Virus record (IMG/VR): IMGVR_UViG_3300010885_043172 | Coordinates: 1-38,161 of that record | Source of the DNA: a virus | Reading direction: 5' to 3' (one strand) | DNA: 38,161 nucleotides | Part shown: in pieces, positions 14,344-30,757 of the stretch | How the letters are laid out: every line of letters begins with the position of its first letter | Position numbering within the stretch: the stretch's first letter is position 1 | Notes under the pieces: model-generated | Told to the model about the DNA's origin: nothing | The model's database searches: none | What the model saw: the letters and a program-made list of their open reading frames with translations, nothing else | Made by a program: the position numbers and the translations under genes

Positions 14344-14355
14344 TGAGGAATGATT

Positions 14356-15258: not shown

Positions 15259-16124
15259 AAAAAGATGTGATAGTTGGTAGTATTACTAATTATAATTTTG
15301 ATCAAATTAAGCCTTGGGTAAATTCTCTAGATCAGTGTGGATTTACTGGCGATAAAGTTATGATCTGTTATAATATAAACACTTCAGTCGCTGATGAGAT
15401 GATATCTAGAGGATATAAAATATTTGCTTTTAATCAAATTGGTTCTAATTTAGTATATAATAATCCAAATTTTAATATAGTGGTTGATCGTTTTTTTCAC
15501 ATGTGGCTTTTCTTTAAACAGATAAAAGATCAGTATAGATATATTATTTCTACAGATGTGCGCGATGTTATTTTTCAAGGAAATCCGTCTGATTGGCTTG
15601 AAATTAATATGAAAGATAAAAAGATTAATGCTTCTAGTGAGTCTATCCTTTATAAGGATGAAATCTGGGGAACGAATAATCTTTTAAAATCTTATGGTCC
15701 CGACATTCATGCTGCATTTAATAATAATTTAATTGTAAATGCTGGTGTTATGGCAGGTGAAATTGAAACAATGTTAGATTTATTTCTCAATATATATGTC
15801 ATGTGCAATGGAGCATCATCGCATAATATTTCTGGTGGAGGCGGACCTGATCAAGCAGCATATAACATTTTACTTTCATCCAAGATATATCAAGATGTTA
15901 CTAATATAGCTTCATCTGAAGATGGATGGGCTTCCCAATTGGGGACTACAGGATTTCAGTCATCATATGGCGCTGAAGGAAAACTAGTAGAAGCGCAACC
16001 ACAAATTATTAATGGTGTTATATGCACTTCCAAAGGAATTCCATTTACGATTGTTCATCAATATGATCGAATTCCAGAATTGAATGAGTATATATTTAAT
16101 AAGTATAAAAAGGATAACAAATGA
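15255..16124 (+). CDS. GT-A type glycosyltransferase-like protein
   Basis: A 289-aa protein. IISTDVRDVIFQGNP (Asp101, Asp104) resembles the metal-binding DxD region of GT-A enzymes, and it is followed by NAGVMAGE, GPDQAAYN and, near the end, FTIVHQYDR, an arrangement seen in hexosyltransferase-like families. It probably transfers a sugar from a nucleotide donor to a surface glycan or phage acceptor. It overlaps the epimerase gene and the next gene by 4 bases each, so all three are co-translated. Donor and acceptor cannot be told from sequence alone. Confidence 0.7.
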   Translation: MKKDVIVGSITNYNFDQIKPWVNSLDQCGFTGDKVMICYNINTSVADEMISRGYKIFAFNQIGSNLVYNNPNFNIVVDRFFHMWLFFKQIKDQYRYIISTDVRDVIFQGNPSDWLEINMKDKKINASSESILYKDEIWGTNNLLKSYGPDIHAAFNNNLIVNAGVMAGEIETMLDLFLNIYVMCNGASSHNISGGGGPDQAAYNILLSSKIYQDVTNIASSEDGWASQLGTTGFQSSYGAEGKLVEAQPQIINGVICTSKGIPFTIVHQYDRIPELNEYIFNKYKKDNK

Positions 16125-16885
16125 AAATAGCATTGTTATTGCCAGGACAACTACGATGGATGGATAATCCTCATACAGTTCAAACACATCATGATTATAT
16201 TATCAATAAATATGATACTGACATTTTTGGCTCTTTTTGGATTCCAGATGATAGTGAGGTTATTCTTGATTCTCGGCATGTAAACTATGCGCCATCACCT
16301 TCAGATAGTTTAGCTTGCAATAAAATTCAAGAAAAATATAATTTTAAAAAAATAGAATTTATACAACCAAAACAATTTAGTCAGGCTGAAGAATTTTATA
16401 CTAAAGTAAAAAAGCATAAATGGCCTAATTTATGGGAAGCAGGTTGGTTAGATAGAGCTAATGTATTTAATAATATTTTTAGTCAAATGTATGCTATCCA
16501 ACGAGTAACAAGACTTTTAGATAATTTTATGTTAAGTAATTCAATATCTTATGATATGATTGTTTTATCAAGACCTGATTTATGTATATGGTCTTATCCA
16601 GAGCTTAATGAATTGGATAAAAATAAATTTTATTTGAGCAATCATCATGGTTTATTTCCAGACCTTACCTTTATTTTTGGACCATCTTTTATTAGAGCAT
16701 TCTCTGAAGTTTTTGATAATTTGCTTCATATTAATGATGATGAACTTTATAGTCTGTGGGAACCAAATGCTGAAGGAATTAAATTTAACTCATACCGCAG
16801 AAATTTTTCTTTAGAACACTTGACACCAATACCAATTCCAGTTAGAATAGTACGTGGACAAGATTGCAAAGGGCCTCAGTGGTAA
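16121..16885 (+). CDS. putative glycan-biosynthesis protein (LPGQLR-type)
   Basis: A 254-aa protein that starts MKIALLLPGQLRWMDNPHTV, followed by YDTDIFGSFW and, near residue 150, DMIVLSRPDLCIW. The opening G-Q-L-R strand and the later R-x-D resemble a set of uncharacterised, possibly glycosyltransferase-fold proteins in capsule and phage sugar clusters (recollection). No signal peptide or membrane segment. Very AT-rich. Its position between a GT-A protein and a nucleotidyltransferase supports a sugar role. Confidence in coding is high, in function low. Confidence 0.6.
   Translation: MKIALLLPGQLRWMDNPHTVQTHHDYIINKYDTDIFGSFWIPDDSEVILDSRHVNYAPSPSDSLACNKIQEKYNFKKIEFIQPKQFSQAEEFYTKVKKHKWPNLWEAGWLDRANVFNNIFSQMYAIQRVTRLLDNFMLSNSISYDMIVLSRPDLCIWSYPELNELDKNKFYLSNHHGLFPDLTFIFGPSFIRAFSEVFDNLLHINDDELYSLWEPNAEGIKFNSYRRNFSLEHLTPIPIPVRIVRGQDCKGPQW
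16820..16848 (+). promoter_or_regulatory. possible internal sigma70 promoter
   Basis: TTGACA (16820-16825), a 17-bp spacer and TAGAAT (16843-16848) lie inside the end of the LPGQLR-type gene, with a start point about 35 bases before the nucleotidyltransferase ATG. The match is good but the site is in coding DNA, so it may be chance. Confidence 0.35.
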
Positions 16886-16889
16886 TATT

Positions 16890-17624
16890 ATGAATATTGT
16901 TATTCCAATGGCTGGAGAAGGAACTAGATTTCCAAAGGCCAAATATAAAAAGTCTAAACCTTTAATTGATGTACTGGGTAAACCTATGATTCAAGCTGCT
17001 ATTGAATCATTAAATATCGATGGTCAATATAACTATATTATTCGAAAAGAACACAAAGATGAAGTATGGGATATATTAAATGACCTCACCCCTGACTGCA
17101 ATATAATTTCTGTAGAGACTACTACTGGAGGCCCGGCAGATTCAGTTCTTCTTTTTAATGACGTGATCAATAATAACGAAGAACTTATTGTAGCAAATTG
17201 CGACCAAATTATGTGGTGGGATTCTGAGATGTTTCTTGTTAATGCTAGACACGAAAAATATGATGGGATGATTGTCACATATCATTCAGACACACCAAAA
17301 AATTCATATGCTCGAATCAATAATCAAGGGTTTGTTGTTGAAATAAAAGAGAAAGTAATTATTAGTAATATTTCTCTTAACGGTATTCATTATTGGAAAC
17401 ATGGGTCTTATTTTGTGGATAGTGCAAACCGAATGAAAGCCTGTAATGATACGGCTCCAAATGGTGAGTATTATGTGGCACCTACATATAACTATATGAT
17501 AAATGATCTTGATAAAAAAGTAGGTGTTTACCATATACCAAATTTTCAGCACAATCCAGTGGGGGTTCCAGAAGACCTCGAACAATACATTTTTAAGGTA
17601 TCTTATGAAAAAAACAAGAATTGA
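16890..17624 (+). CDS. sugar-phosphate nucleotidyltransferase
   Basis: A 244-aa protein with the NTP-binding signature MNIVIPMAGEGTRFPKAKY, then KPLIDVLGKPMI, TTTGGPADSV and VANCDQI, where the Asp binds metal. It would join a sugar-1-phosphate or similar phosphate to a nucleotide. It lacks the left-handed beta-helix of GlmU-type enzymes and is about the length of a lone Rossmann domain. ATG 16890 is taken because it starts exactly at the conserved strand; an upstream in-frame start would overlap the previous gene. A second, fused nucleotidyltransferase lies at 21810, so the cluster may make two activated donors. Confidence 0.82.
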   Translation: MNIVIPMAGEGTRFPKAKYKKSKPLIDVLGKPMIQAAIESLNIDGQYNYIIRKEHKDEVWDILNDLTPDCNIISVETTTGGPADSVLLFNDVINNNEELIVANCDQIMWWDSEMFLVNARHEKYDGMIVTYHSDTPKNSYARINNQGFVVEIKEKVIISNISLNGIHYWKHGSYFVDSANRMKACNDTAPNGEYYVAPTYNYMINDLDKKVGVYHIPNFQHNPVGVPEDLEQYIFKVSYEKNKN

Positions 17625-17931
17625 AGATTATAAAAGAGGATGGTTTATTGGAAATTTTGAGCCATCTGTATTAAAAACAAAAGAATTTGAAGTGTCTTAT
17701 ATGCGACACGCTAAAGGAGAAATATGGGATGCTCATTATCATAAAGAAAGCATTGAATATAATGTTTTAATTGAAGGAAAAATGATCATTCAAGGAATAA
17801 CATTAGTGAGTGGTGATGTATTTGTTTTTGATAAAGGTGAGATTGCAGACCCAGTATTTCTTGAAGATTGTAAATTAATTGTTGTGAAAGTGCCCAGTAT
17901 TATAGGAGATAAGTATGAAGTTTTTCCGTGA
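17605..17931 (+). CDS. cupin-fold protein
   Basis: A 108-aa single-domain cupin: DAHYHKESIEYNVLIEGKMI gives the His-x-His and the following Glu of metal-binding motif 1, and LVSGDVFVFDKGEIADPVF corresponds to motif 2, lacking its usual His. Cupins of this size serve as isomerases, epimerases or sugar-binding proteins. The ATG lies 20 bases inside the upstream gene and its own end overlaps the RuBisCO-like gene by 17 bases, so it is tightly coupled to both. It may act on the same substrate as the RuBisCO-like enzyme (inference from position). Confidence 0.72.
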   Translation: MKKTRIEDYKRGWFIGNFEPSVLKTKEFEVSYMRHAKGEIWDAHYHKESIEYNVLIEGKMIIQGITLVSGDVFVFDKGEIADPVFLEDCKLIVVKVPSIIGDKYEVFP

Positions 17932-19105
17932 ACGTGAAGAAATTAATGAACAAGATTATGTTATAGCAACATATTTGCTTGGCAGCACAAAATCAATACG
18001 CGATGCAGCTTGGAATTTAGCAATTGGTCAATCTGTTGGCAATCCAAATGTTCGCAATGAATGGGAAACTGAATTGATGTTTGAGCATCATTCATGTATT
18101 ATTTTAGCGAATGAAAAACAGTTAGAAAAAATCGGAATAATGCCCGTTCAGATTGCATTTCCGATTGTTAATACAGATTGGGAAACTGATGGAATAAGTC
18201 ATCTTTTATGCCAGCTAATGGGTGGCCATGTTGATATAGATGTTGTTACCAGTTGTAGATTAATTAATTTGGAAATTCCAGTTTCCGTCAAGAAAAAATT
18301 CCTTGGGCCAAAATTTGGCATCACAGGCTTTAGAGATTTTACAGGACAATACGGCAAGCCATTATTTGGAAGTATTGTTAAGCCAAAAATTGGTATTACC
18401 CCTGAAGTGCTGCTAGAGATGGTTAAACAGATGGTAGACGGTGGGGTTGATTTCATCAAAGAAGATGAAATTATGGTTAATCCAATTATTGCCCCGCTTG
18501 AGCGTAGAGTAGATATTATTTCAAATTATCTAGCTAAACAGTCTAAAAAAGTTGTATTTTGCCACACAATTAACTGCGATCCTCATATTCTTCATGATAG
18601 AGTGTCCAAAGTACATGAACTTGGTGGCAATGGAGTACACATTAATGTATGGTCAGGATATGGAGCTTATAATAGTATTAGAAAGCTTGATTTGCCAATT
18701 TATCTTCATTTTCAAAGCAGCGGCGCTAAAGTCATCACAGACCAGTCGCATAAATACAGCATTTCGTGGTCTGTTATGTGTCAGTTAGCAACTCTTATGG
18801 GCGTTGACACTATTCAAACAGGTATGATTGGTGGTTATAGCAATGATGATCCCGTAGAAGTTAGAGAGTGTATTGATATTTTGCAGAATGGTAATACACT
18901 TCCAGCTTTAAGCTGTGGATTTCATCCGGGTTTAGTTGACTATGTAACGGAAACTGTTGGTAACGATTATTTGGCAAATGCAGGTGGAGCCGTACATGGC
19001 CATCCTAACGGTACAGTATCCGGCGCTAAGGCTATGCGACAAGCAATTGAAAAAAATTATGAAAAAGAATACCTATTAGCGATTTCTCAATGGGGAAAAA
19101 AATAA
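17915..19105 (+). CDS. RuBisCO-like protein (form IV type)
   Basis: A 396-aa homologue of the RuBisCO large subunit. The barrel has GSIVKPKIGIT (Lys156/Lys158, matching Lys175/177), DFIKEDE with Lys182, Asp184 and Glu185 in place of the carbamylated Lys201 and metal ligands Asp203/Glu204, ALSCGFHPG (Ser333 for Ser379) and AGGAVHGHPNG for the phosphate-binding GGG-GHP segment. Residues needed for carboxylation are changed: loop-6 Lys334 is Tyr308, His327 is Gln301, and His294/Arg295 fall in LHFQSSG. The N-terminal domain is short and the usual Asn123 is not evident. Thus an enolase- or isomerase-type reaction on a sugar phosphate is likelier than CO2 fixation. AGGAG precedes the ATG. It lies among sugar-activation genes, unusual for a phage. 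Confidence 0.85.
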   Translation: MKFFREREEINEQDYVIATYLLGSTKSIRDAAWNLAIGQSVGNPNVRNEWETELMFEHHSCIILANEKQLEKIGIMPVQIAFPIVNTDWETDGISHLLCQLMGGHVDIDVVTSCRLINLEIPVSVKKKFLGPKFGITGFRDFTGQYGKPLFGSIVKPKIGITPEVLLEMVKQMVDGGVDFIKEDEIMVNPIIAPLERRVDIISNYLAKQSKKVVFCHTINCDPHILHDRVSKVHELGGNGVHINVWSGYGAYNSIRKLDLPIYLHFQSSGAKVITDQSHKYSISWSVMCQLATLMGVDTIQTGMIGGYSNDDPVEVRECIDILQNGNTLPALSCGFHPGLVDYVTETVGNDYLANAGGAVHGHPNGTVSGAKAMRQAIEKNYEKEYLLAISQWGKK

Positions 19106-19120
19106 AAAAGGAAAGTAAAT

Positions 19121-19792
19121 ATGAAAGAATATAATTATACACAATGGAGCAATGATCTTACTAAAGATATCAGATTTGGTGATCATAGAGATGATATGGA
19201 CTGGAATGATGGAAGTTTTCCAGAAGTAGATACTTGGTCTATTCACGTTCAGCACCCAGTTACAGGTGTTGGTCAGACTCAAAGTGAATGCAATATCGAC
19301 AACTTATTGAAATATTTTAATTCAATTAAGAATGATTGCAAATGCATTGTTGAAATTGGTGTTGATTGTAATGGCAGTCCAACTGATATGACTTCAACCA
19401 AAAAACTTCTACTTGAAAAACATCCAGATACTGTATATATTGGAGTTGATATTGAAGATAAGTCATATTTAAACGATGAAATTAACAATATTTTTACAAT
19501 TAAGATTGACTCTTCAAATATTGATGGTGTTATGGAATTTGTTAGGTCCAAAAATATTGAAAGTATTGATTTTCTATTTATTGATGGGTGGCATAGCATC
19601 AATCAGGTTTTGAAAGAATGGGAATACACTAAGTGGCTATCTCCAAATGGAATAGTTGGATTTCATGATACGGCGGTGCACCCAGGGCCAGCAATGTTCC
19701 TTAAATATCTTGATCGTAATATTTGGAATGTTGATCTACCATGCCAGCATATGCGTAATGATTTTGGAATTGGTTTTACATGGAAAAAGTAA
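19121..19792 (+). CDS. methyltransferase-fold protein
   Basis: A 223-aa protein with a class I SAM-methyltransferase-like core: CIVEIGVDCNGSPTDMTSTK (motif I region), TVYIGVDIEDKS (acidic end of strand 2), then IDFLFIDGWHSINQVLKEWE and LSPNGIVGFHDTAVHPGP. The DGWHS and FHDT motifs resemble the Methyltransf_24/cephalosporin-hydroxylase group found in glycan clusters. It could methylate or otherwise modify a sugar. The glycine-rich motif is weak (E-I-G-V-D), so SAM use is likely but not certain. The ATG follows AAAAGGAAAGTAAAT. The WavE-like gene overlaps its end by 13 bases. Confidence 0.65.
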   Translation: MKEYNYTQWSNDLTKDIRFGDHRDDMDWNDGSFPEVDTWSIHVQHPVTGVGQTQSECNIDNLLKYFNSIKNDCKCIVEIGVDCNGSPTDMTSTKKLLLEKHPDTVYIGVDIEDKSYLNDEINNIFTIKIDSSNIDGVMEFVRSKNIESIDFLFIDGWHSINQVLKEWEYTKWLSPNGIVGFHDTAVHPGPAMFLKYLDRNIWNVDLPCQHMRNDFGIGFTWKK

Positions 19793-20598
19793 AATACCCA
19801 ACTGTGTCTCTTGTTATTCAGGGGCCAATAAACAATAAAAAAAAATTAGATTTTATTGAACATATTCCATATTATAAAACTTTATTTGATGAAATTATTG
19901 TTTCCACTTATACAGAGCATCTTATTGGTAATAGTGATTTTATTGATTTCTGCGAATGTAATAACATTATTATTCGACATATTTCAGAAAATATTGGTAA
20001 TGTTAGAAATGATGCAAGAGTTGGTTATCAGACTTTAACGACATATACAGGATTAAGGGCTGTCACCAATCCATATGCAATGAAACATAGAACTGATGAA
20101 CGATATTCTAATCTTGATAAATTAATTGATAAATTTCTTATTGATGATGAAAAATGGGTTTCTGGCAGTCTTTTATTCGGTCCAAAAGTATATCGATTAT
20201 TCCATGCCGCAGATCATTTGTTTATAGCTAAGACGGATAAACTATTGATGACATTTAGAATGACTCTTGACAATCTTAAATGTGGTAAGATGGAAGTCAA
20301 CTTTCCTGGCGATACAAATGGTGCTCCTGAAATTACTTATACAAAAAACTTTATACGTGTATCGGGCGAGAAACCAGTAGATGAAAATCATGACTATTTA
20401 ATTCGAAAATACTTCGATATTGTTAATAATTCTGAACTTTTTCCATTTATATCAAGAGAAAATGGCGCACAAAAAATTTACAGATCAATTGATGATATGG
20501 GGCCTAATAGAATACAATATCAAACAATTGAAGATATCTTGACTAAAGATTATATTGAAGGTCATGAAAATTGGAATCACCCTAACTGTTTTTATTAA
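19780..20598 (+). CDS. WavE-family glycan synthesis protein
   Basis: A 272-aa protein. VSLVIQGPINNKKKLDF at the start, DEIIVSTY, then HISENIGNVRNDAR and MKHRTDERYSNLDKLIDKF match the WavE family, named for a Vibrio cholerae LPS-core gene and regarded as glycosyltransferase-like. The motif of R-x-D-x-R after TNPYAMKH fits the family pattern. It likely transfers a sugar onto LPS, capsule or a phage acceptor. It starts within the end of the methyltransferase-fold gene. Family call is good; specific reaction unknown. Confidence 0.78.
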   Translation: MEKVKYPTVSLVIQGPINNKKKLDFIEHIPYYKTLFDEIIVSTYTEHLIGNSDFIDFCECNNIIIRHISENIGNVRNDARVGYQTLTTYTGLRAVTNPYAMKHRTDERYSNLDKLIDKFLIDDEKWVSGSLLFGPKVYRLFHAADHLFIAKTDKLLMTFRMTLDNLKCGKMEVNFPGDTNGAPEITYTKNFIRVSGEKPVDENHDYLIRKYFDIVNNSELFPFISRENGAQKIYRSIDDMGPNRIQYQTIEDILTKDYIEGHENWNHPNCFY

Positions 20599-20609
20599 GG
20601 AATTATAAT

Positions 20610-21065
20610 ATGATTTATATTGCACATAGAGGTCTTTTTACAGGCCCTGATAAAGAAAAAGAAAACCATCCAGATCAGATTGATCTTTCTTTATCAAAAG
20701 GTTATGACTGTGAAGTCGATTTATGGCGTGTTGACAATAAGTTATGGCTTGGTCACGATGGCCCATCGTATGAGATTAATGAGGATTATATAGAAAATAG
20801 ACAATTAAAACTTTGGATTCACGCAAAGAATCTCATGGCACTGCGCTGGTTGTCAGAAACCTCATATAATTACTTCTGGCATCAAAATGATGATTTTACA
20901 TTAACTAGTTTTGCTCATATTTGGACATATCCAGATAAAGAACTAACTGATCTTAGTATATCTGTCATGCCAGAGTGGAAATATACACTTAGTGAGTTGA
21001 AAGAATATAAGCCAAAATGTTATGGAATTTGTAGTGATTTTATTGAATTAATCTCGAATAGTTAA
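20610..21065 (+). CDS. GDPD/PI-PLC-like phosphodiesterase domain protein
   Basis: A 151-aa protein with glycerophosphodiester phosphodiesterase motifs: AHRG (His6, Arg7), EN (18-19), GYDCEVDLW (Glu35, Asp37) and LGHD (His49, Asp50), which form the metal and acid/base site. It is shorter than ordinary GDPDs (about 240 aa), so the barrel looks incomplete or minimal, as in a group of capsule-linked proteins. It may release or process a polyol-phosphate used in the glycan. The ATG follows AAGGAATTATAAT. The kinase-like gene starts 5 bases after its stop. Confidence 0.72.
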   Translation: MIYIAHRGLFTGPDKEKENHPDQIDLSLSKGYDCEVDLWRVDNKLWLGHDGPSYEINEDYIENRQLKLWIHAKNLMALRWLSETSYNYFWHQNDDFTLTSFAHIWTYPDKELTDLSISVMPEWKYTLSELKEYKPKCYGICSDFIELISNS

Positions 21066-21069
21066 TCTA

Positions 21070-21819
21070 ATGTTAGATGAAAAAATAATAAAATTTCTAA
21101 ATGGTCATTCTGGCTCTGAAATTATGCTGATGGAATCAGATAAACTGTTTGTAAGAAAGATAGGAAATACTACGAGAAATTATAAAAAACTAATTGAGCT
21201 TAAAGAAGAAGGATATTCGGTACCTGATATTTATTCATTTTTGGACGATGTTCTTGATATGGAATATATCAATGGTCTAGATATATCCAATTATCTATTG
21301 TATAATAACGCCAGTAAACTATATTCATTTATTTGTAGTACCATAGATAATTTTAGACATACCTCTAAAATAAAAGATTATACTGAAGTATATCATATAA
21401 AATTAAAATATGTGGATGAAGAAAATGTATTTCCATTTACAAAAAATGAACTTATAGAATGTCTACCAAAATATCTTCCATCAACTCAATATCATGGCGA
21501 TATGACTCTAGAAAATATTATATGGTCTGATAGTGGTGAATTTTATATGATAGACCCATTAGAAAGTGAATATGATTCTTATATATTCGATATAGCTAAG
21601 ATGCGACAAGATTTGGAATGCCAATGGTTTTTTAGAAATAGTACATCAAAAATTGAAACAAAAGTTCATTCATTACAGGAAAAAATACTGGAGAAATATC
21701 CTGAAGCATCCAATGATAATCTACTTATTTTGATGTTGCTTAGGGTATACCCTAATACTAAAAGTGGTGATGGGGACAGAGAGTTCCTACTAAAGGAGAT
21801 TAAAAGATTATGGAAATAA
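21070..21819 (+). CDS. APH/choline-kinase-like small-molecule kinase
   Basis: A 249-aa protein with an aminoglycoside-phosphotransferase fold: LFVRKIGNT supplies the ATP-binding lysine region, QYHGDMTLENIIW holds the catalytic HGD (His142, Asp144) and Asn149, and FYMIDP gives the metal Asp162. Relatives phosphorylate choline, sugars or polyols (LicA-type) before a nucleotidyltransferase activates them. The next gene, a nucleotidyltransferase-HAD fusion, overlaps it by 10 bases, matching that two-step logic. No strong ribosome binding site; coupling from the gene before is probable. Substrate unknown. Confidence 0.75.
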   Translation: MLDEKIIKFLNGHSGSEIMLMESDKLFVRKIGNTTRNYKKLIELKEEGYSVPDIYSFLDDVLDMEYINGLDISNYLLYNNASKLYSFICSTIDNFRHTSKIKDYTEVYHIKLKYVDEENVFPFTKNELIECLPKYLPSTQYHGDMTLENIIWSDSGEFYMIDPLESEYDSYIFDIAKMRQDLECQWFFRNSTSKIETKVHSLQEKILEKYPEASNDNLLILMLLRVYPNTKSGDGDREFLLKEIKRLWK

Positions 21820-22841
21820 TTGTGCCATCTGCTGGCTTATCATCTAGGTTTCCTAGTATGAGGCCCAAATATCTATTATACGATTATACTGGAAAGTTGA
21901 TGATTTATCAAGCTCTAAAGCCATATCTAAACAAATATAAGATTACTATTGGCATACTTGAAGAGCACGATAAATTATATGATGCTGTTGAAAGTCTCCG
22001 TCATGAATTTGGTGATCTTGTAGATATTTTTCTATTCTCAGAAACTACTACAGGCCCTGCTGATACCGTGTGCCAAATGTTGGAAAGAATTACTGCCACT
22101 CGTGGAGATACGAGCGTTCTAATTAAAGACTGCGATTCCTTTTTCGATCATACACCTATCAATGGCAACTACGTATGTACCTCTAATATATCAGAACATG
22201 ATACACTAAGAAGAGTATCGGCAAAAAGCTTTATTATATACAATAACCAAGATATCATCACTGATATTATGGAAAAATCAGTGTCGTCCGATACATTCTG
22301 CTGTGGTGGGTATAAGTTTGAATCTGCACAGCAATTCATCAACATTTATAAGTCCTTGACTGTAAGTGGAGAGCCATTTGTTTCTGACGTGATTTCCAAG
22401 ATGATTTCAAATGGCTCTGTTTTTATCAAAAATTCAGTTTCAAACTATGTAGACGTAGGAACTGCTGAAGAATGGTTTGAATACAATGATGTCCCAGTTA
22501 TCTTCTGTGATATTGACGGTACTATTATAAAAAATCAAGGTAGAATTGGAAAAAATAACTATAACACATCTCCTATATTGCTTCAAAATAATATTGACAA
22601 ATTACTTGAATATCAAGCCAAAGGGAGTCAGATTATATTTACAACATCAAGACCTACATATACGAAACAACTCACAGAAAAAATGCTTGAAGATATTGGA
22701 TTTAAAGACTTTAAATTGATTATTGGACTATTAAATAGCAGACGAATCTTGATTAATGATTTTAATGCTGCTAATCCTTGGCCTAGAGCAGTGGCTCTAA
22801 ATATTGAACGTGATTCAAATACACTAGGATATTATCTATAG
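21810..22841 (+). CDS. nucleotidyltransferase-HAD phosphatase fusion
   Basis: A 343-aa two-domain protein. Residues 1-225 form a nucleotidyltransferase (IIVPSAGLSSRFPSMRPKYL, TTTGPADTV, LIKDCDSFF with a metal Asp), and residues 228-343 form a small HAD domain with IFCDIDGTII (Asp234, Asp236) and FTTSRP. The fusion suggests activation of a phosphorylated small molecule coupled to phosphate removal, a pairing seen in capsule loci. It is translated together with the APH-like kinase. It lacks a membrane segment, so it acts in the cytoplasm. Confidence 0.82.
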   Translation: MEIIVPSAGLSSRFPSMRPKYLLYDYTGKLMIYQALKPYLNKYKITIGILEEHDKLYDAVESLRHEFGDLVDIFLFSETTTGPADTVCQMLERITATRGDTSVLIKDCDSFFDHTPINGNYVCTSNISEHDTLRRVSAKSFIIYNNQDIITDIMEKSVSSDTFCCGGYKFESAQQFINIYKSLTVSGEPFVSDVISKMISNGSVFIKNSVSNYVDVGTAEEWFEYNDVPVIFCDIDGTIIKNQGRIGKNNYNTSPILLQNNIDKLLEYQAKGSQIIFTTSRPTYTKQLTEKMLEDIGFKDFKLIIGLLNSRRILINDFNAANPWPRAVALNIERDSNTLGYYL

Positions 22842-24406: not shown

Positions 24407-24426
24407 TATAAATAGTTCTATAAATA
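24407..24426 (+). promoter_or_regulatory. tandem T4-type late promoters
   Basis: Two perfect TATAAATA boxes, 24407-24414 and 24419-24426, spaced 12 bp, in the short gap between the terminator and the first virion-region gene. This octamer is the only essential element of T4 late promoters (read by the gp55 sigma factor with the sliding clamp). Start points should be near 24420 and 24432. Confidence 0.8.
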
Positions 24427-24441
24427 ATCAAGAGGACTATC

Positions 24442-24861
24442 ATGACAAAGTGGGTAAAAGGAAAGTTTGAGAGCGAGATTAAAAGCTTTACAGCTATTGC
24501 TAATAAAATTGCATCCGACATAAGTCAGCAAGAAATTAAAAAGAAACTTGTTGAGCAGATGCTTGAAGACTTTAAGAAAAAATATAATGCTAAAAAAGAG
24601 CAAGTCTTAAAGCCGACCACATGGAGAATGCTTGAAGGCAGTGAATCATGGAATTGCGATACTATGATTAAAATTGAAAAACAACTCAAATCTTCTGACA
24701 TCAAACTTTTATACGAGATTATATACGAAATGTTGTCTGAAAAAAATATAAATTGCCCGATTATCATGATGCAAAACAATGTTGGTATGCTTGTATGTGG
24801 TGAGAATACTCTAATGGCATGTAAATTACTAAATATAGAACCAAAAGTAATAATGATATGA
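24442..24861 (+). CDS. phage protein with ParB-like C-terminal segment
   Basis: A 139-aa protein. The first half is a charged helix; the end, NCPIIMMQNNVGMLVCGENT and LMACKLLNIEPKVIMI, resembles the closing strand-helix of ParB/sulfiredoxin-like domains (pattern G-x-N/H-R-L-x-A-x-x-L-G), though the central Arg is replaced. I recall comparable proteins near virion genes of T4-like phages. The ATG follows AAGAGGACTATC and tandem late promoters, so it is expressed late. It overlaps the next gene by 4 bases. Function unknown. Confidence 0.6.
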   Translation: MTKWVKGKFESEIKSFTAIANKIASDISQQEIKKKLVEQMLEDFKKKYNAKKEQVLKPTTWRMLEGSESWNCDTMIKIEKQLKSSDIKLLYEIIYEMLSEKNINCPIIMMQNNVGMLVCGENTLMACKLLNIEPKVIMI

Positions 24862-25112
24862 AAACACTCAAACAATTCCTAGACGAAACTCCTGCTAATA
24901 TATCTGCCGGAACGGGTGTAAGAGGATTTGGAGACGTTTCTGGAACTCCTACAGGTGATATTACTAACTATGCTGCATTTAACGCCTCAGACAATTCTAG
25001 AGCCGATGCTGTAAATGGTATCGTAGATCAACACAACGCAATGCATACAGACTCATTAGAAGCCAGTGATGCAGATACTAAAGACAACCTCTTAAAACCA
25101 AAGAAGAAATAA
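24858..25112 (+). CDS. small late protein with internal-head-protein-like leader
   Basis: An 84-aa protein. It opens MKTLKQFLDETP, resembling the capsid-targeting leader of T4 internal proteins (MKTYQEFIAE), and FLDE fits the (L/I)-x-E site cut by T4 prohead protease gp21. The rest is polar, Gly/Asp/Ala-rich and probably disordered, ending KPKKK. It may be packaged in the head, and possibly injected. It lies just before a large virion protein gene, 4 bases overlapping its upstream neighbour. The leader similarity is my reading; protease and cleavage are not shown here. Confidence 0.55.
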   Translation: MKTLKQFLDETPANISAGTGVRGFGDVSGTPTGDITNYAAFNASDNSRADAVNGIVDQHNAMHTDSLEASDADTKDNLLKPKKK

Positions 25113-25113
25113 T

Positions 25114-26640
25114 ATGGCCCAGTGGCGCATCGATCAACAGAAAAAGGTAGAACAGAACAGTAAGACCCTATATGAATTGGGAATGATTGCTAATGTTAAT
25201 GGCGATCCTGTTAGTAATACCAATCCATTTCCTGTTACATTAGGTTCAAATAATATTACCATTACAGGTAATGTGAATGTTGGTACAACAGTTGAAGTGT
25301 CGAGTACACCTCAAAATCCAGTACATACCCATATTACAGAAGTTGGCAACAGCGGTCTTTTAACAGTTTCGTATATGCCTATTGGCGGTAACGTAGTAGT
25401 TACTGGTTCTGTTAATGTTGGTAACATTCCAGCATCTCAGAATGTCGTAGTTACATCAGGTAATTTTGCATTTGATCCTGTAGCATCAGATGCGTTTGGT
25501 AGACACAGAGTATCATTACCGCTAACACTTTTTGATTCTTCTCATAGATATAAAGATAATGGATTATGGAGTACATCTAATACTTCTGGTACTACCTATG
25601 CATTTAGTCCTAATGAAGGCTTAGTAACACTAAATCTTCCCACAACAGCTAATGCAGAAATCATTCGAGAGACTAATAAAGTATTTGCGTATCAACCCGG
25701 CAAATCACTCCTTGTTCTTAATACATTTGTCCCAGAACCACCAAAGACAAATCTTCGTCAGCGTATAGGTTATTTTGGTGCACAAAATGGAATCTATTAT
25801 GAGCTAGAAGGAAATACGGCATACTTTGTAGAAAGATCATACGTATCTGGTTCTTTAGTAGAAACACGAGTAGCACAAGCAGATTGGAGTGAAAACACTC
25901 TATCAAGTTTTGATAAGAGCAAAGCTCAGATTTTCTGGATGGATATTGAATGGCTTGGTCTCGGTACTGTTCGTTGCGGTTTTGTTATTAATGGCAAGTT
26001 TATTCACTGTCATTCGTTCCACCATGCTAATTTAATTACATCCACTTATATTACCACGGCATCGCTGCCTATTCGTTATGAAATTAAAAATACAGGGACA
26101 ACTGCAAGCATTTCTACTATGAAGCAAGTTTGCTCGTCTGTAATCTCTGAAGGCGGATATGAACTGAGAGGCGTACAACAAGCTATAGGGATTCCAATCA
26201 CTGCGGCACGTACTTTGGCTACAGCAGGAACATTTTACCCAATTGTATCATTAAGATTAAAATCAACGGCATTGGATGCTATAGTGATCCTGACCGCCAT
26301 ATCTACTATTGCAGATACATCAAGCAATTTTAACTGGCAAGTGAAAGCAAATACGACTACAACGGGCGGAACATGGGTAAGCGCAGGTGCCGATAGTGCT
26401 GTTGAATATAATATAACAGGTACTAGTACATCAGGGGGTAGAGTGCTTGCCTCTGGTTTCTTTACAGCAACCCAAAGCACCAGCGTATCTGTAGATATTC
26501 TCAAAGAAGCACTATTCAAGTTTCAACTAGAAAGAAACAGCTTAACTGGAACTCCGTTTGAAATTTCTTTAGTGTTGGCATCTAAAACTAATGGTGAGGG
26601 TGTTTACGCATCGATGGATTGGGAAGAAGTTTCAAGATAA
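25114..26640 (+). CDS. large beta-rich virion protein
   Basis: A 508-aa protein. Residues about 30-125 are repeat-like strands (ITITGNVNVG, VVVTGSVNVG and NVVVTSGNF share a V-x-V-T/N-G pattern typical of fibre-like beta segments). After DAFGRHRVSLP comes a large globular beta domain with LRQRIGYFG and YFVERSY, then a C-terminal beta-sandwich-like region ending GVYASMDWEE. It looks like a surface-exposed virion or tail/baseplate-associated protein, as in T4-like phages of aquatic bacteria (recollection). No enzyme motif. It starts one base after the stop of the small leader-bearing gene and is transcribed from the late promoters at 24407-24426. Confidence 0.7.
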   Translation: MAQWRIDQQKKVEQNSKTLYELGMIANVNGDPVSNTNPFPVTLGSNNITITGNVNVGTTVEVSSTPQNPVHTHITEVGNSGLLTVSYMPIGGNVVVTGSVNVGNIPASQNVVVTSGNFAFDPVASDAFGRHRVSLPLTLFDSSHRYKDNGLWSTSNTSGTTYAFSPNEGLVTLNLPTTANAEIIRETNKVFAYQPGKSLLVLNTFVPEPPKTNLRQRIGYFGAQNGIYYELEGNTAYFVERSYVSGSLVETRVAQADWSENTLSSFDKSKAQIFWMDIEWLGLGTVRCGFVINGKFIHCHSFHHANLITSTYITTASLPIRYEIKNTGTTASISTMKQVCSSVISEGGYELRGVQQAIGIPITAARTLATAGTFYPIVSLRLKSTALDAIVILTAISTIADTSSNFNWQVKANTTTTGGTWVSAGADSAVEYNITGTSTSGGRVLASGFFTATQSTSVSVDILKEALFKFQLERNSLTGTPFEISLVLASKTNGEGVYASMDWEEVSR

Positions 26641-26649
26641 GGAAAAAAA

Positions 26650-27360
26650 ATGAAAACACTAAAAGATTTTATTTCAGAATGTGTTCTTAAAGAACGTGAT
26701 GAGGGTTCAGACCATCCGGCAGTTGTTAAGTTTGCGTCAAAAGCACATGATGAATGGCGCAGAGGATTTGAAGCATCAAATGGTAAAGGCACAGAGCGAA
26801 TCAAAAATAATAGCGATGGCACTTCAGGTAATATAAATGTGTCGTTTGATAAGTTGCACCCTGATTGGCAAAGAGAAAATCTTGCAGCAGGTAGAGCAGC
26901 AAAAGAAGCAGTGGAAAAACATGGTTCCAATACAGAAGCTGCTGCTGAACATATTCATAATGAATGGATGAAGCGCAATCCTAAAGCAGATTACAATGCA
27001 GCACAACATGTTCCTTATTCTGAACTACCAGAAGAAGAAAAAGAAAAAGATCGTGTTCATGTTAGAACAATGAGAAATCTTTTAAATGTTCATGAAGAAT
27101 ATATTTTTGAACGTGGTGAAGACGATAAAGGATATTACCGTGCAACAGAAGATGGTGCTGGCCTTACAAAGAAAGGCGCAGAACACTTTGGTATAAAGAC
27201 TGCTGTAACAAGAAAGAATGTCGATCCTGACTCTGAGGCAGGTAAACGCCGTAAGTCATTTTGTGCAAGAATGTCTGGTATGCCCGGCCCAATGAAAGAT
27301 GAAAAAGGAAGACCTACACGTAAGGCAATGTCTTTAAAGAGATGGCGTTGTAAAGTCTAA
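26650..27360 (+). CDS. late protein: internal-head-type leader, RyR-like domain, C-terminal Cys/Arg motif
   Basis: A 236-aa protein. The leader MKTLKDFISEC resembles T4 internal-protein capsid-targeting leaders, with FISE fitting the (L/I)-x-E prohead-protease site. Residues about 21-90 (AHDEWRRGFEASNGKGTERI, then KLHPDWQREN) resemble the RyR domain found in some phage and bacterial proteins. The end, RRKSFCARMSGMPGPMKDE with later K-R-W-R-C, is a short conserved Cys/Arg motif I have seen in phage virion proteins. Together these suggest a protein packed into the head and possibly delivered to the host. The ATG follows AAGGAAAAAAA. A late promoter and RNA element follow its stop. Confidence 0.6.
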   Translation: MKTLKDFISECVLKERDEGSDHPAVVKFASKAHDEWRRGFEASNGKGTERIKNNSDGTSGNINVSFDKLHPDWQRENLAAGRAAKEAVEKHGSNTEAAAEHIHNEWMKRNPKADYNAAQHVPYSELPEEEKEKDRVHVRTMRNLLNVHEEYIFERGEDDKGYYRATEDGAGLTKKGAEHFGIKTAVTRKNVDPDSEAGKRRKSFCARMSGMPGPMKDEKGRPTRKAMSLKRWRCKV

Positions 27361-27364
27361 AAAG

Positions 27365-27372
27365 TATAAATA
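27365..27372 (+). promoter_or_regulatory. T4-type late promoter
   Basis: A perfect TATAAATA. With T4 late spacing (box at -13 to -6) the start point would be base 27378, which is exactly the first base of the 27-bp stem described next. Confidence 0.8.
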
Positions 27373-27434
27373 AAGGGTGGTTAAGGCTAAGGCAAACACC
27401 CATTTAAAAACAGATAAGCCCAAGGGAAACTCTG

Positions 27435-27539
27435 ATGGAAAGAACAAAAGTAATACCCCGCGACCAAATTTCTTCTCCCAAGCTAGATGCCGTTGTCGGA
27501 GAAATGGGTGTTTCCTTAGTCTTAATCAACGGAATTTAA
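27435..27539 (+). CDS. possible 34-aa protein within the structured RNA
   Basis: ATG at 27435 follows AAGGGA at 7-base spacing and encodes MERTKVIPRDQISSPKLDAV and 14 further residues ending VLINGI, then TAA. The composition is protein-like, but the 3' arm of the long stem lies inside it. Either a small late protein or an incidental frame in an RNA gene. Confidence 0.35.
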   Translation: MERTKVIPRDQISSPKLDAVVGEMGVSLVLINGI

Positions 27540-27541
27540 GG

Positions 27542-27571
27542 GCTTCTTGTATTTTGCAAGAGGCTTTTTTT
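27542..27571 (+). terminator. rho-independent terminator
   Basis: GCTTCTTG (27542-27549) pairs with CAAGAGGC (27557-27564, one G-U pair), followed by seven T. It ends the structured RNA and lies just before the ribosome binding site of the 894-aa protein, so that gene needs read-through or another start. Confidence 0.85.
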
Positions 27572-27587
27572 ATACATAGAGGAAAAT

Positions 27588-30272
27588 ATGAGCACACCTG
27601 AAAACATTAGAAATAAAGCTTATAGTGCAGCCCGTCAACTCGTGAGAAATCGTCTCGCTGAGAGTGCTGGTGCTGCTTATGAAAAGCTTGGTCCAACTGA
27701 AAAGATGAATATTGACAGGGCCGTTGAAAAAAAGCAAGCTCAAATTAAAAAAATTGCTCTTAAATTAATTCCACAAATTGCCAACAATGATAAAAAGCGT
27801 TTAGATTCATTCAATACTGGAAGTCCATTAGCAAACTATGGTTCCCCAGAAATGGGTGATGTTAACGAAGAGCTTAATAAAAAATTTGCAAAGCAAGTTT
27901 CTTCAAACAAAAAAGAAAAGCCAACTGAAAAAGGCGGCAAATGTGCTTACATTCAAATGCACAATACTTTTGGTGAAGAAGTTTCATTAAACAGCGCCGT
28001 ATATAAAGCAATGATTAAAAAATCTGATAAATCAGGGATTGATGTCAATATTCTTGGTGAAATCTATAATCGTGGTATGAATATATGGAATAAAAATACA
28101 AATGTTTCACAACAGCAATATGCGTTTGCTCGTGTAAATTCTTTTATCAACAAAGGTAAGACATACTTCAATGAAGATAGTGATCTTGTTACTGAAACTA
28201 AAAAGAAAATGAAGGTTGAAATTCAAGAAGAAACTGAAACCTTTAAGAAGGGCGATGTAGTATATCTAAAGACTAATAAGTCTGCAAATTCTCCGCACAC
28301 AGGTATAGTTAAAACAGTTACTCCTACACATGTTCACATTAAAGCTGTGGGTGGTACAGGATTGTATAGGGCACCTCATTCTTCGGTCACTAAAGATAGA
28401 AAACTATCTTATCATCATGTTACCTATGGTAATAAAAACGAAGAAACAGAGATAGAAGAAGCTCAAGCAAAACCATATGTTAAGCCTTTACACAATGAAA
28501 GTGGAAAGCAGGTTGGGTGGAAATCATCAAATGGTCATCATGTAAAGTACTGGCAGATGTTTGCCAAAAAGTCTGCATTAAAACATGCTAAACTTGAAGA
28601 AAGTATTGAAGAAGATGATTTTTTAGAACTAAACGATGAGGGAATTAATTTCTTCATTGAAAATGGTCTTGAATTTGATCTTGCTGAAGCCACAATCAGA
28701 AACACTAAAAAATTAATTCAAAGACTTCATGATGTCGAACAAGGTCAAACTTATGGTGGCCAACCATATTCAAGCCATCCAAAGTCAGTAATGCGTCTAG
28801 GTATTAAAGTTTTTGGTGGAAAACGTTTTGATCAAAATGCAAGAAAAGCAGCACTACTTCATGATACAATTGAAGACACGCCGACAACACCAGAAACTTT
28901 AATTAAAAAAGGTTTTCATCCTGATGTTGTGAAAGCAGTTCAGCTATTGAGCAAAGACAAAACAAAATCATATGAAGGCAATATCGAAAATATTGCTAGT
29001 GGTAATACTCCTGCTCATAAAATCGCACAGATGGTTAAGTATAGTGATAACATGTCAAATTACATGTCTATGCCAAAGCCAGAATGGGATAATGAAAAAG
29101 TTAAAAAACAAAAAACAAAATATATGGACTCAATGAAAAGATTGGGTCAAGTACTTGGCGTAAATCATCATGAAACACTTGAGCCAAAGTGGAAGCTTAA
29201 AGAAAACACAACTGATGATAACAAGCCATGTCAATCAAAAGATATTAATGAAGATTTGCGTAAATGGTTTGATCAAAAATGGGTTCGTATGGACACCAAG
29301 GGTAAGATCAAAGGTGATTGTGCTAGAGAAGAAGGTGAAGGCAAACCAAAGTGTCTTCCAATGGCTCAAGCACAAGCCATGGACCCAAAGGATAGAGCCA
29401 AAGCCGCTCGACGTAAGCGCAGAGAAGACCCAGTTGCTGATAGAGAAGGCAAAGGTGAAAAACCTATTAACGTCAGAACAGAAGCGGTAAGCCGAGCGCA
29501 ACAAGCTGCAATTGCTATTTCTATGAAGAAAGCTGGTAGGAAGCCAAAGAACGAAGAGGTTCAACCCCTAGAAGAAAAATCCAATCCTACTAATCCAGCC
29601 CTGTGGTCAAAAGCAAAGTCTCTTGCTCGTCAGAAGTTTGATGTATATCCTTCTGCATATGCTAATGGATGGGCGGCTAAATGGTATAAATCAAAGGGTG
29701 GTGGATGGAATTCTGCTAACGAAGAATTTGTAGATACATCAAAAGGTTTAAATGAATCTTTCAACATGGCATTTGATTATCAGGGAAAGCCAGTAATAGC
29801 ACCTACAGCACATGAATTAATGATGAAAACACAAGGCGGGTTTGCTCATCACAATGACGTACAGGATGTTATGAACGTCAAATCAATCAAAGAAGAGATT
29901 GAGAAGATATTTCAATCGACTATTCTTGAAGAAGATGATGATAAACTAGCAATTTCTATGAATAGCTTAATTAATATGGTCAATGAAGCATTCACCACTA
30001 TTGATAGAATTAAGTCAGCTAATATTGAACGTGATGCATGGTCACAGGCTCAAATCCTTAAGTTAGAACGCTACATTGAATCGGTTGCCGCATACATTAA
30101 CAACATAGATGAAACCGTAAGAAGCGGCGAAACACATGGTGTTATCGTTCCTGCACACACAATCGTCAGTCAAAAAACAGGTCAGTCAATCACTATACCT
30201 GCTAAGACAAAGAATGTAAAGAAGAATGATGTAGTTCTTCATCCAAATGACAATCCATTCGATGGTAAATGA
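27588..30272 (+). CDS. 894-aa composite virion protein with MESH1/SpoT-type HD hydrolase domain
   Basis: Domains in order: 1-75 helical (KAYSAARQLVRNRLAES); 115-200 a segment ending QQYAFARVNSFINKGKTYF seen in phage proteins (DUF5824-like as I recall); 218-255 a KOW-like strand set (KKGDVVYLKTNKSANSPHTG); about 374-525 an HD domain of the (p)ppGpp hydrolase type with HP (His397), LLHDTIEDT (His425, Asp426, Glu429, Asp430) and KYSDNMSNY (Asp487, Asn491), all catalytic positions being at MESH1/SpoT spacing; 556-626 a DLRKWFDQKWVRMDTKG motif with basic tail; 667-707 an ALWSKAKSLARQKFDVYPSA motif; 780-894 helical/beta tail. No synthetase domain. GAGGAAAAT precedes the ATG. It lies among late virion genes, suggesting it is packaged and perhaps injected to lower host alarmone (inference). 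Confidence 0.8.
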   Translation: MSTPENIRNKAYSAARQLVRNRLAESAGAAYEKLGPTEKMNIDRAVEKKQAQIKKIALKLIPQIANNDKKRLDSFNTGSPLANYGSPEMGDVNEELNKKFAKQVSSNKKEKPTEKGGKCAYIQMHNTFGEEVSLNSAVYKAMIKKSDKSGIDVNILGEIYNRGMNIWNKNTNVSQQQYAFARVNSFINKGKTYFNEDSDLVTETKKKMKVEIQEETETFKKGDVVYLKTNKSANSPHTGIVKTVTPTHVHIKAVGGTGLYRAPHSSVTKDRKLSYHHVTYGNKNEETEIEEAQAKPYVKPLHNESGKQVGWKSSNGHHVKYWQMFAKKSALKHAKLEESIEEDDFLELNDEGINFFIENGLEFDLAEATIRNTKKLIQRLHDVEQGQTYGGQPYSSHPKSVMRLGIKVFGGKRFDQNARKAALLHDTIEDTPTTPETLIKKGFHPDVVKAVQLLSKDKTKSYEGNIENIASGNTPAHKIAQMVKYSDNMSNYMSMPKPEWDNEKVKKQKTKYMDSMKRLGQVLGVNHHETLEPKWKLKENTTDDNKPCQSKDINEDLRKWFDQKWVRMDTKGKIKGDCAREEGEGKPKCLPMAQAQAMDPKDRAKAARRKRREDPVADREGKGEKPINVRTEAVSRAQQAAIAISMKKAGRKPKNEEVQPLEEKSNPTNPALWSKAKSLARQKFDVYPSAYANGWAAKWYKSKGGGWNSANEEFVDTSKGLNESFNMAFDYQGKPVIAPTAHELMMKTQGGFAHHNDVQDVMNVKSIKEEIEKIFQSTILEEDDDKLAISMNSLINMVNEAFTTIDRIKSANIERDAWSQAQILKLERYIESVAAYINNIDETVRSGETHGVIVPAHTIVSQKTGQSITIPAKTKNVKKNDVVLHPNDNPFDGK

Positions 30273-30316: not shown

Positions 30317-30757
30317 ATGGATAAACTAATCGAACAAATGAAAAGATTACTAGCCGATGTTTATGCATATGGTCTAAAGGCACAGAACTATCATTGGAAT
30401 GTCGAAGGCCCAGACTTTATGCAATATCACGGTTTATTTGGTGGTATCTATGAAAAGGCTGCTGAAGATGTGGACACAGTTGCAGAACATATTCGTGCTC
30501 TTAATTCATATACTCCTGCTTCATTTGGTCGTTTTCAAGAACTAACATCAATTCAGGATGAGACAACTGTTCCTATTGCAATTGAAATGGTAAACCGTCT
30601 TTATCAGGACAATGCAAAGGTTCTTGCTACTGCTAAGATTGCATGTGCAACTGCTGATGAACTAAAGCAGCATGGTGTTTTAAACTTTCTTGAAGGTTTA
30701 ATTGACGATTACGAAAAACAATCATGGATGCTACGTTCAACTGTAAAGAGAGTCTAA
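30317..30757 (+). CDS. Dps-like ferritin-family protein
   Basis: A 146-aa four-helix protein with the Dps signature: AQNYHWNVEGPDFMQYHGLF then EDVDTVAEHIRAL. Ferroxidase ligands correspond to His26, His38, Asp53 and Glu57, at the same spacing as E. coli Dps His51, His63, Asp78 and Glu82; the Dps Asp67 position is Gly42. Dps proteins form 12-mers that store iron and protect DNA from peroxide. This one is translated from a late region, so it may be in or around the virion. It lacks the long basic N-terminal tail of E. coli Dps. The ATG follows TAGGGAATAAA; the next gene starts one base after its stop. Confidence 0.88.
   Translation: MDKLIEQMKRLLADVYAYGLKAQNYHWNVEGPDFMQYHGLFGGIYEKAAEDVDTVAEHIRALNSYTPASFGRFQELTSIQDETTVPIAIEMVNRLYQDNAKVLATAKIACATADELKQHGVLNFLEGLIDDYEKQSWMLRSTVKRV

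What the first reader, a model, noticed from the sequence alone, without database searches (positions are those of the whole stretch)
28707..29162. (p)ppGpp-hydrolase (MESH1/SpoT-like) HD domain inside a late virion-type protein
Residues about 374-525 of the 894-aa protein carry every catalytic position of the Rel/SpoT/MESH1 hydrolase fold: HP (His397), HDTIEDT (His425, Asp426, Glu429, Asp430) and the SDNMSN site (Asp487, Asn491), with spacings close to MESH1 (28 between the two His; 61 from the HD Asp to the second Asp; 4 to the Asn). There is no synthetase domain. The flanking modules are of the kind found in phage head proteins, and the gene sits among genes with T4-type late promoters. A virion-borne alarmone hydrolase could reach the host cell at injection and switch off a stringent response before any phage gene is read. 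It could also act late to keep metabolism up during assembly.
Basis: partly seen in the sequence, partly recalled or inferred. Interest (0 to 1): 0.92.

Follow-up and report, generated by a model that had tools for sequence, protein, structure and literature searches.

The report
Alarmone-hydrolase domain in phage head-type polyproteins
A marine T4-type phage gene carries an intact enzyme domain of the kind that destroys bacterial stress signals (alarmones), placed inside a large modular protein that looks like cargo of the virus head, and relatives of this domain sit in head-type proteins of many other phages, so such phages may deliver the enzyme together with their DNA; neither the delivery nor the exact substrate has been shown.

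Summary
Residues 368-535 of the 894-aa protein are an intact hydrolase domain of the small-alarmone-hydrolase (SAH)/MESH1 type. The predicted structure (pLDDT 93) matches SAHs, MESH1 and a (p)ppApp hydrolase at Z about 19; HD phosphohydrolases outside the RelA/SpoT family reach at most 12. All seven catalytic residues are present, also in all 35 family members checked, and selection is purifying. About 30 relatives (40-71% identity) were found in viral contigs, nearly all inside large modular T4-type phage proteins. In the closest relative the gene lies between small and large terminase, in the gp13...gp23 head operon, on a contig that also encodes the gp21 protease. The domain follows a [LI/V]-x-E sequence (T4 gp21 cuts after L/I-X-E) in 22 of 22 complete members.

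Not shown: that the protein is in virions, cleaved or ejected, or acts on (p)ppGpp. The loop that carries basic residues in characterised hydrolases is shortened to GQxYGxxPY, so the substrate is open: (p)ppGpp, (p)ppApp, tRNA 3'-pyrophosphate, NADPH or PAPS. Best reading: head-targeted SAH-type cargo, likely counter-defence (0.45). New variant of a known kind; interest 0.68. In passing: a conserved structured late RNA without an Rfam match lies just upstream.

The parts
27588..30272 (+). Gene for the 894-aa modular head-type protein that carries the hydrolase domain
   Evidence: modules shared with other T4-type phages
28689..29192 (+). SAH/MESH1-type hydrolase domain (aa 368-535): H397, H425-D426, E429-D430, D487, N491
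28680..28691 (+). L-A-E|A (aa 365-368), candidate gp21-type prohead protease site immediately before the hydrolase domain
   Evidence: motif L/I-X-E from PMC9026906
27588..27902 (+). Module A, N-terminal helical module (phrog_23027), shared with L008 and L094
27909..28178 (+). Module B, DUF5824; also in Kyanoviridae phage Melnitz
28188..28463 (+). Module C, 60% identical in L008 and L094
28464..28622 (+). Module D, 49% identical in L105 (another HD-carrying contig)
29220..29507 (+). Module F (phrog_23735-like), found in the T4-GC_119 gene between gp16 and gp17 of cyanophage S-BM3
29550..29753 (+). Module G, 74% identical over 53 aa in the same S-BM3 gene
29751..30269 (+). C-terminal part, begins at L-N-E|S (Glu723); no relative found among the held loci by tblastn, though L008/L094 show a similar L-D-E|AFNIAF start by eye
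27365..27372 (+). TATAAATA, T4-type late-promoter-like, conserved at the same distance upstream in L008 and L094
27377..27583 (+). Conserved structured RNA with terminator-like hairpin, between promoter and gene
   Evidence: no Rfam match
25114..26640 (+). Upstream neighbour: virion structural protein (phrog_1645), up to 67% identical to cyanophage virion structural proteins
26650..27360 (+). Upstream neighbour: DUF6321 protein with a start like a T4 capsid-targeting sequence (MKTLKDFISE)
30317..30757 (+). Downstream neighbour: ferritin/Dps-like protein, conserved next to the HD gene in L008 and L094

Best explanation
The domain is a functional SAH-type metal-dependent hydrolase that removes a 3'-(pyro)phosphate from a nucleotide or tRNA end, and it is made late as part of head-targeted cargo. 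The modular precursor is incorporated into the prohead core, the gp21-type protease cuts after L/I-x-E sites between modules (one, LAE|A, lies right before the domain), and the released enzyme is ejected with the DNA and erases an alarmone-type signal: (p)ppGpp, (p)ppApp, or a toxSAS-made 3'-pyrophosphate on tRNA. Shown here: fold, complete conserved catalytic residues, purifying selection, modular head-type architecture, position in the head operon of the closest relative. Inferred: catalysis, packaging, cleavage, ejection, substrate, counter-defence role. Rough step confidences: SAH-type enzyme domain 0.95; active 0.85; packaged in the head 0.55; acts after ejection on an alarmone-type 3'-pyrophosphate 0.45.
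For: Fold: pLDDT 93; Z 19.7 P. aeruginosa SAH, 19.4 7smg, 19.2 MESH1; the closest HD enzyme outside the RelA/SpoT family is YpgQ at 12.0. Catalytic residues kept in 35 of 35 family members; dN/dS 0.07-0.17 for the domain against 0.26 for a whole polyprotein pair. Closest relative (71% identity over 165 aa): gene order head-tail adaptor, head closure, TerS, HD gene, TerL, sheath, tube ... gp21 protease, scaffold, major head protein on one 24-kb contig. Window modules F and G are homologous to the cyanophage gene in the same gp16-gp17 slot. The 141.8-kb relative (L094) ends in T4-type neck genes 67-69% identical to those of that contig. [LIV]xE directly before the domain in 22 of 22 complete members, 16 with L or I, against 29% of random 30-aa windows in the same proteins; L/I-X-E[AGS] enriched in the window protein (5 v 1.5 expected, P 0.018) and in L008 (9 v 2.8), not in DNA polymerase or helicase of the window. 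Some relatives start with CTS-like peptides (MKPSEFLTE, MKSFTEHLTE, MDKINEITE). The nucleotidyltransferase module fused to the domain in relatives resembles T4-GC_190 (28% identity, E 4e-5), a family detected in S-SM1 virions (PMC3037559). Precedents: T4 IPI* is packaged, cut and injected as counter-defence (PMC3012670); phage SSU5 SAH reverses tRNA pyrophosphorylation by FaRel2 (PMC11559606).
Against: No proteomics; the phages are uncultured. No gp21 or gp23 was found in the window contig (it is a 38-kb fragment). The [LIV]xE before the domain may be conserved as part of the domain's own N-terminal segment, since the members are related. The site after the domain is weaker in the window (LKE|N). 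The N-terminus of the window protein (MSTPENIRNKAY) is not clearly CTS-like. Enrichment of sites is weak in G010 (P 0.046) and absent in L105 (P 0.40). The basic residues of the substrate loop are missing, so action on (p)ppGpp is not assured. In P. putida about half of 67 phages did better without (p)ppGpp, half worse (PMC12814882), so removing it is not always useful. L094's genome also has a stand-alone SAH away from the head-type block, so virion delivery would be a second, partly redundant route.
Confidence: 0.45

Rival explanations
1. The enzyme is real but acts in the cytoplasm late in infection (keeping nucleotide pools and translation going during assembly); the fusion to head-type modules only links its expression or location to assembly and nothing is ejected.
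For: Stand-alone SAHs of many phages lie among non-structural genes; the closest relative L092 is only 281 aa with one small N-terminal module; no proteomic proof of packaging.
Against: In the closest relative the gene sits inside the head operon; the fusion partners are varied and head-type; LxE sites precede the domain throughout. L094's phage already has a stand-alone SAH for cytoplasmic work.
Confidence: 0.27
2. Virion-borne or not, the substrate is not (p)ppGpp but another 3'- or 2'-phosphate: toxSAS-pyrophosphorylated tRNA ends, (p)ppApp, NADPH or PAPS. The enzyme undoes toxSAS-type defence or tunes NAD(P) or sulfur pools.
For: The GQxYGxxPY loop lacks the Arg/Lys of RSH and MESH1 and is shorter. 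The profile of the close family scores Lmo0812 and the (p)ppApp hydrolase 7smg above MESH1, and 7smg is the top single-sequence and Foldseek hit. Several relatives fuse the domain to nucleotidyltransferase modules, one with weak NMN-adenylyltransferase similarity. SAHs vary widely in base preference and some act on NADPH (PMC9765508, PMC7644958); a phage SAH acts on tRNA (PMC11559606).
Against: [quoted passage not shown] scores differ little between the classes.
Confidence: 0.4
3. The domain is a catalytically dead structural passenger in a head protein.
For: It sits among structural-type modules of unknown function, and the substrate loop is changed.
Against: All seven catalytic residues kept in 35 of 35 members and dN/dS of 0.07-0.17.
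Confidence: 0.06
4. It is an immunity protein for a phage-borne alarmone-synthetase toxin (like Aph1 next to MuF-Apk2).
For: The fold is closest to Aph1-type 7smg by Foldseek; MuF-Apk2 is a head-associated alarmone synthetase (PMC12226406).
Against: No RelA_SpoT synthetase (PF04607) found in this or seven related contigs, control positive in 11 of 14 genomes; the contigs are incomplete, so absence is not proven.
Confidence: 0.05

Closest known systems
Small alarmone hydrolases (P. aeruginosa SAH 6yvc/6z3n, human MESH1 3nr1/5vxa, RelH 7qod)
   Same: Fold over the whole domain (Z 17-20); HP, HDxxED and D-x3-N catalytic residues; no synthetase domain
   Different: Single-domain proteins; MESH1 and RSH carry basic (R/K) residues in the loop before the PY..HP motif, which here is a shorter GQxYGxxPY loop; not linked to phage heads
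(p)ppApp hydrolase of Bacteroides caccae, PDB 7smg (Aph1-type by inference)
   Same: Top hit by single-sequence search and by Foldseek, 25-30% identity, similar size
   Different: Stand-alone; DKAG in the loop; Aph1 enzymes are described as immunity to MuF-Apk2 toxins (PMC12226406), and no such toxin is found here
Stand-alone phage SAHs (phrog_990; e.g. PaSpo of Salmonella phage SSU5, Pseudomonas phage Adele, Vibrio and Aeromonas phages)
   Same: Same fold family; Vibrio phage members share the GQxYGxxPY loop
   Different: About 150-170 aa, among non-structural genes; not fused to head-type modules
T4 internal head proteins (IPI, IPII, IPIII, Alt) with capsid-targeting sequence and gp21 cleavage
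   Same: Late, head-type, LxE sites, CTS-like starts in several relatives and in neighbouring genes; gp21 present in the closest relative
   Different: T4 IPs are single modules, no SAH among them; packaging is demonstrated for T4, not here
Cyanophage T4-GC_119 gene between gp16 and gp17
   Same: Same gene slot as the closest relative's HD gene; shares modules F and G with the window protein
   Different: No hydrolase domain match in S-BM3's gene; function unknown

Membership tests
RSH/SAH hydrolase superfamily | RSH hydrolase fold | tested here: met
   AF2 model pLDDT 93; Z about 19 to SAHs/MESH1, mostly 12-16 to Rel/SpoT hydrolase domains, 12 or less to HD enzymes outside the family
RSH/SAH hydrolase superfamily | Metal and catalytic residues (HP His, HD, ED, Asp/Asn) | tested here: met
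   All seven present; 35 of 35 family members
RSH/SAH hydrolase superfamily | Basic residues in the loop before PY..HP (R/K in RSH and MESH1) | tested here: not met
   Loop is GQTYGGQPY here, GQxYGxxPY-type in the family; 7smg has DKAG, ttRel RRSG, MESH1 RRKDPEG. The role of these residues in base binding is from memory
RSH/SAH hydrolase superfamily | Mn2+-dependent hydrolysis of (p)ppGpp or (p)ppApp | not testable with these tools
   Needs purified protein
Small alarmone hydrolase (SAH) in the strict sense | Single-domain protein | tested here: not met
   Domain is 168 of 894 aa; most relatives are also fused
Small alarmone hydrolase (SAH) in the strict sense | No synthetase domain | tested here: met
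T4-type internal (ejected) head protein | Located with late head genes of a T4-type phage | tested here: met
   Closest relative lies between TerS and TerL in the head operon; in the window next to a virion structural protein
T4-type internal (ejected) head protein | gp21-type cleavage sites (L/I-X-E) and N-terminal capsid-targeting sequence | tested here: inconclusive
   LAE|A before the domain and enrichment of sites; CTS-like starts in relatives but not clear in the window protein; cleavage not shown
T4-type internal (ejected) head protein | Present in purified virions and ejected | not testable with these tools
   Uncultured phage; no proteomic data found
Aph1 immunity of MuF-Apk2 | Adjacent alarmone-synthetase toxin | tested here: inconclusive
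   PF04607 not found in eight contigs including this one, control positive; contigs incomplete

The most novel reading that the evidence does not exclude
A widespread group of T4-superfamily phages packages an alarmone-hydrolase-type enzyme as protease-released head cargo and injects it, so that alarmone or tRNA-3'-pyrophosphate signals are erased before any phage gene is expressed: a virion-borne counter to alarmone-based defence, and the counterpart of head-borne MuF alarmone-synthetase toxins.
Probability: 0.38. Interest if true: 0.87.

Novelty: new variant of a known kind. Interest (0 to 1): 0.68.

Why it matters
Stand-alone alarmone hydrolases in phages are known and are usually read as host-takeover genes made inside the cell. 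Finding the same enzyme domain repeatedly inside head-type proteins, in one case between the terminase genes, points to a different delivery route: with the DNA, at time zero. That would fit defences such as CapRel/toxSAS that shut translation down before a phage could make its own antidote, and it makes the question directly testable with virion proteomics and a simple enzyme assay. It also extends the T4 internal-protein idea (injected counter-defence proteins) to an enzyme that acts on a small signalling nucleotide or tRNA end, in aquatic phages.

Tried and rejected
(1) First related-locus search with the single domain gave only L002, a DnaB-type helicase with a chance match; rejected. (2) Gp21 and gp23 were not found in the window and its first eight relatives; resolved by the closest relative L092, whose contig has both. 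(3) Claim of a preference for (p)ppApp: the mixed profile scores 7smg far above the rest, but that profile holds 7smg-like stand-alone proteins; with the close family alone the lead disappears, so no claim is made. (4) Chance HD motif or dNTPase-type HD enzyme: rejected by fold, profile and residue conservation. (5) Recent host gene capture: cellular relatives reach only 26-46% identity, the higher values over short segments, many in SpoT-type contexts by organism and length of match, so the family looks phage-typical and old. (6) Toxin-immunity pair: no synthetase found. (7) Defence-system model: no PADLOC hit. (8) Late-promoter argument by count alone: not significant; only position and conservation support it. 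(9) The upstream RNA as a known family: no Rfam match at gathering, only chance-level hits at relaxed threshold.

Full report
WHAT IS THERE. The window is a 38,161-base fragment of an uncultured virus. Its DNA polymerase is closest to those of T4-like cyanophages (46% identity), and its UvsX, gp41-type helicase and primase fit a T4-superfamily phage. The gene at 27588-30272 codes for 894 aa.

THE DOMAIN IS OF THE SAH/MESH1 TYPE. Pfam HD_4 just misses its cut-off, but phrog_990 (E=2e-28), NCBIfam spoT_relA and phmmer against the PDB agree. An AlphaFold2 model from 15 window/locus sequences has mean pLDDT 93. Foldseek and VIA-align put it with P. aeruginosa SAH, the B. caccae (p)ppApp hydrolase 7smg and MESH1 (Z 19.7-19.2), then RelH and Rel/SpoT hydrolase domains; the best HD enzyme outside that family has Z 12.0. 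A shared fold does not show function, but catalytic residues are kept in 35 of 35 relatives and the domain evolves under purifying selection (dN/dS 0.07-0.17, against 0.26 over a whole polyprotein pair; pairs with saturated dS were left out).

SUBSTRATE IS OPEN. In RSH and MESH1 the loop before PY..HP carries Arg/Lys (RRSG in T. thermophilus Rel, RRKDPEG in MESH1), and 7smg has DKAG; here it is a shorter GQxYGxxPY, with Tyr and Gly invariant in the close family. That these basic residues contact the nucleotide is from memory. [quoted passage not shown] Known SAHs range over (p)ppGpp, (p)ppApp and NADPH (PMC9765508), and the SAH of phage SSU5 removes the toxSAS modification from tRNA (PMC11559606). 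PDB entry 9chy shows MESH1 with PAPS.

A PHAGE FAMILY OF FUSIONS. Two profile scans of IMG/VR returned about 30 contigs with clear relatives (40-71% identity). Apart from small forms such as L015, L116 and L117 (183-202 aa), the domain lies in proteins of 268-1554 aa with varied partners: DUF5824, DUF6267, a cytidine-deaminase-like domain, nucleotidyltransferases and unnamed modules. Cellular relatives are distant. Stand-alone phage SAHs are common but are about 150-170 aa and lie among non-structural genes. One relative phage (L094, 141.8 kb) has both kinds: the fusion, and a 152-aa SAH between two calcineurin-like phosphoesterases (the phosphoesterase names are by eye).

WHY HEAD-TYPE. (a) The closest relative (L092, 71% over 165 aa) lies between TerS and TerL in the order head-tail adaptor, head closure, TerS, HD gene, TerL, sheath, tube, portal region, protease, scaffold, major head protein. 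(b) Window modules F and G are found in the gene that occupies the same gp16-gp17 slot in cyanophage S-BM3 (T4-GC_119). (c) The window's 24.8-36.4-kb block is syntenic with L008 and L094, and L094's contig ends in neck genes 67-69% identical to those of L092's contig, tying the lineages together. (d) Next door is a virion structural protein up to 67% identical to cyanophage ones. (e) T4 gp21 cuts after L/I-X-E (PMC9026906). Directly before the domain there is [LIV]xE in 22 of 22 complete members, 16 with L or I; the background for any 30-aa window is 29% (the script printed 23 of 23, but one member, L109, is truncated and is not counted). In the window it is LAE|A, in L008 LLDE|A. This could also be conserved as part of the domain. 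(f) L/I-x-E[AGS] sites are enriched in the window protein (P=0.018), L008 and L009 but not in replication proteins; L105 shows no enrichment. (g) Several relatives and neighbours begin like T4 capsid-targeting sequences (MKPSEFLTE, MKTLKDFISE, MDKINEITE). (h) The nucleotidyltransferase fused to the domain in L013 is related (28%, E=4e-5) to a cyanophage protein annotated as similar to T4-GC_190, a family found by mass spectrometry in S-SM1 virions (PMC3037559).

MOST LIKELY MECHANISM. Late synthesis, incorporation into the prohead core, cleavage between modules, ejection with DNA, and removal of a 3'-pyrophosphate from an alarmone or tRNA. T4 IPI* is the precedent for injected counter-defence (PMC3012670); CapRel/toxSAS (PMC9712102) and stringent signals are possible targets. 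Only the anatomy is shown; every step after it is inferred. A late cytoplasmic role is the main rival. The effect of (p)ppGpp on phages is mixed (PMC12814882), which favours toxSAS products over (p)ppGpp itself as the target; this is inference.

LATE PROMOTER AND A NEW RNA. TATAAATA at 27365 lies 215 nt upstream of the gene and is conserved 219-222 nt upstream of the gene in L008 and L094. Between it and the gene lies a 207-nt stretch that is 86% identical per column, more than the proteins (41-58%), with an 18-bp closing stem, a conserved core and a terminator-like hairpin; the window copy folds at z = -4.9. No Rfam match, no match in 50,697 phage records; found only in these three viruses and a near copy. 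There are no compensatory changes in the three sequences, so the structure rests on energy and conservation. It looks like a separate late small RNA gene, which means the promoter may not serve the hydrolase gene.

NOVELTY. The searches of the held library gave no report of an SAH in a head-type or virion protein; most subscription papers are not held. Domain and delivery principle are both known, their combination appears new: new variant of a known kind.

Noticed in passing
window 27377-27583 (+); L008 1567-1779; L094 2028-2240: Strongly conserved structured RNA (18-bp closing stem, core AACAGATAAGCCCAAGGGAAACTCTGATGGAAAGA, terminator-like hairpin) right after a TATAAATA late-promoter-like site; no Rfam family, only in these viruses. 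Likely a new late phage small RNA.
   Followed up: partly
G010 (contig of L094) 139796-140254 (-): A second, stand-alone 152-aa SAH between two calcineurin-like phosphoesterase genes, in the same phage that has the head-type fusion.
   Followed up: partly
window 30317-30757 (+): Ferritin/Dps-like gene directly after the HD gene, conserved in the same place in L008 and L094 (65% identity).
   Followed up: partly
L010 about 3586-3648 (aa 651-671), also in L124 downstream of the HD domain: Internal Tat-signal-like segments (SRRGFLRGAGAAAALGA; SRRGFLGGLGALVASSG) inside the modular head-type proteins; after cleavage of the precursor they would lie near a new N-terminus.
   Followed up: no
window 14350-22841 (+): Long block with a nucleotide-sugar epimerase and ORFs that look by eye like nucleotidyltransferases and glycosyltransferases in a T4-type phage, perhaps surface-sugar synthesis.
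   Followed up: no
window 24407-24426 (+): Two TATAAATA sites 12 bases apart just before the ORF at 24442, the start of the head-type block.
   Followed up: no
window 24858-25112 and 26650-27360 (+): Short proteins starting MKTLKQFLDE and MKTLKDFISE, resembling T4 capsid-targeting sequences.
   Followed up: partly
L009 1166-4174: One polypeptide that joins DUF6267, a nucleotidyltransferase-like part, a cytidine-deaminase-like domain and the SAH-type domain, a possible multi-enzyme head cargo.
   Followed up: partly
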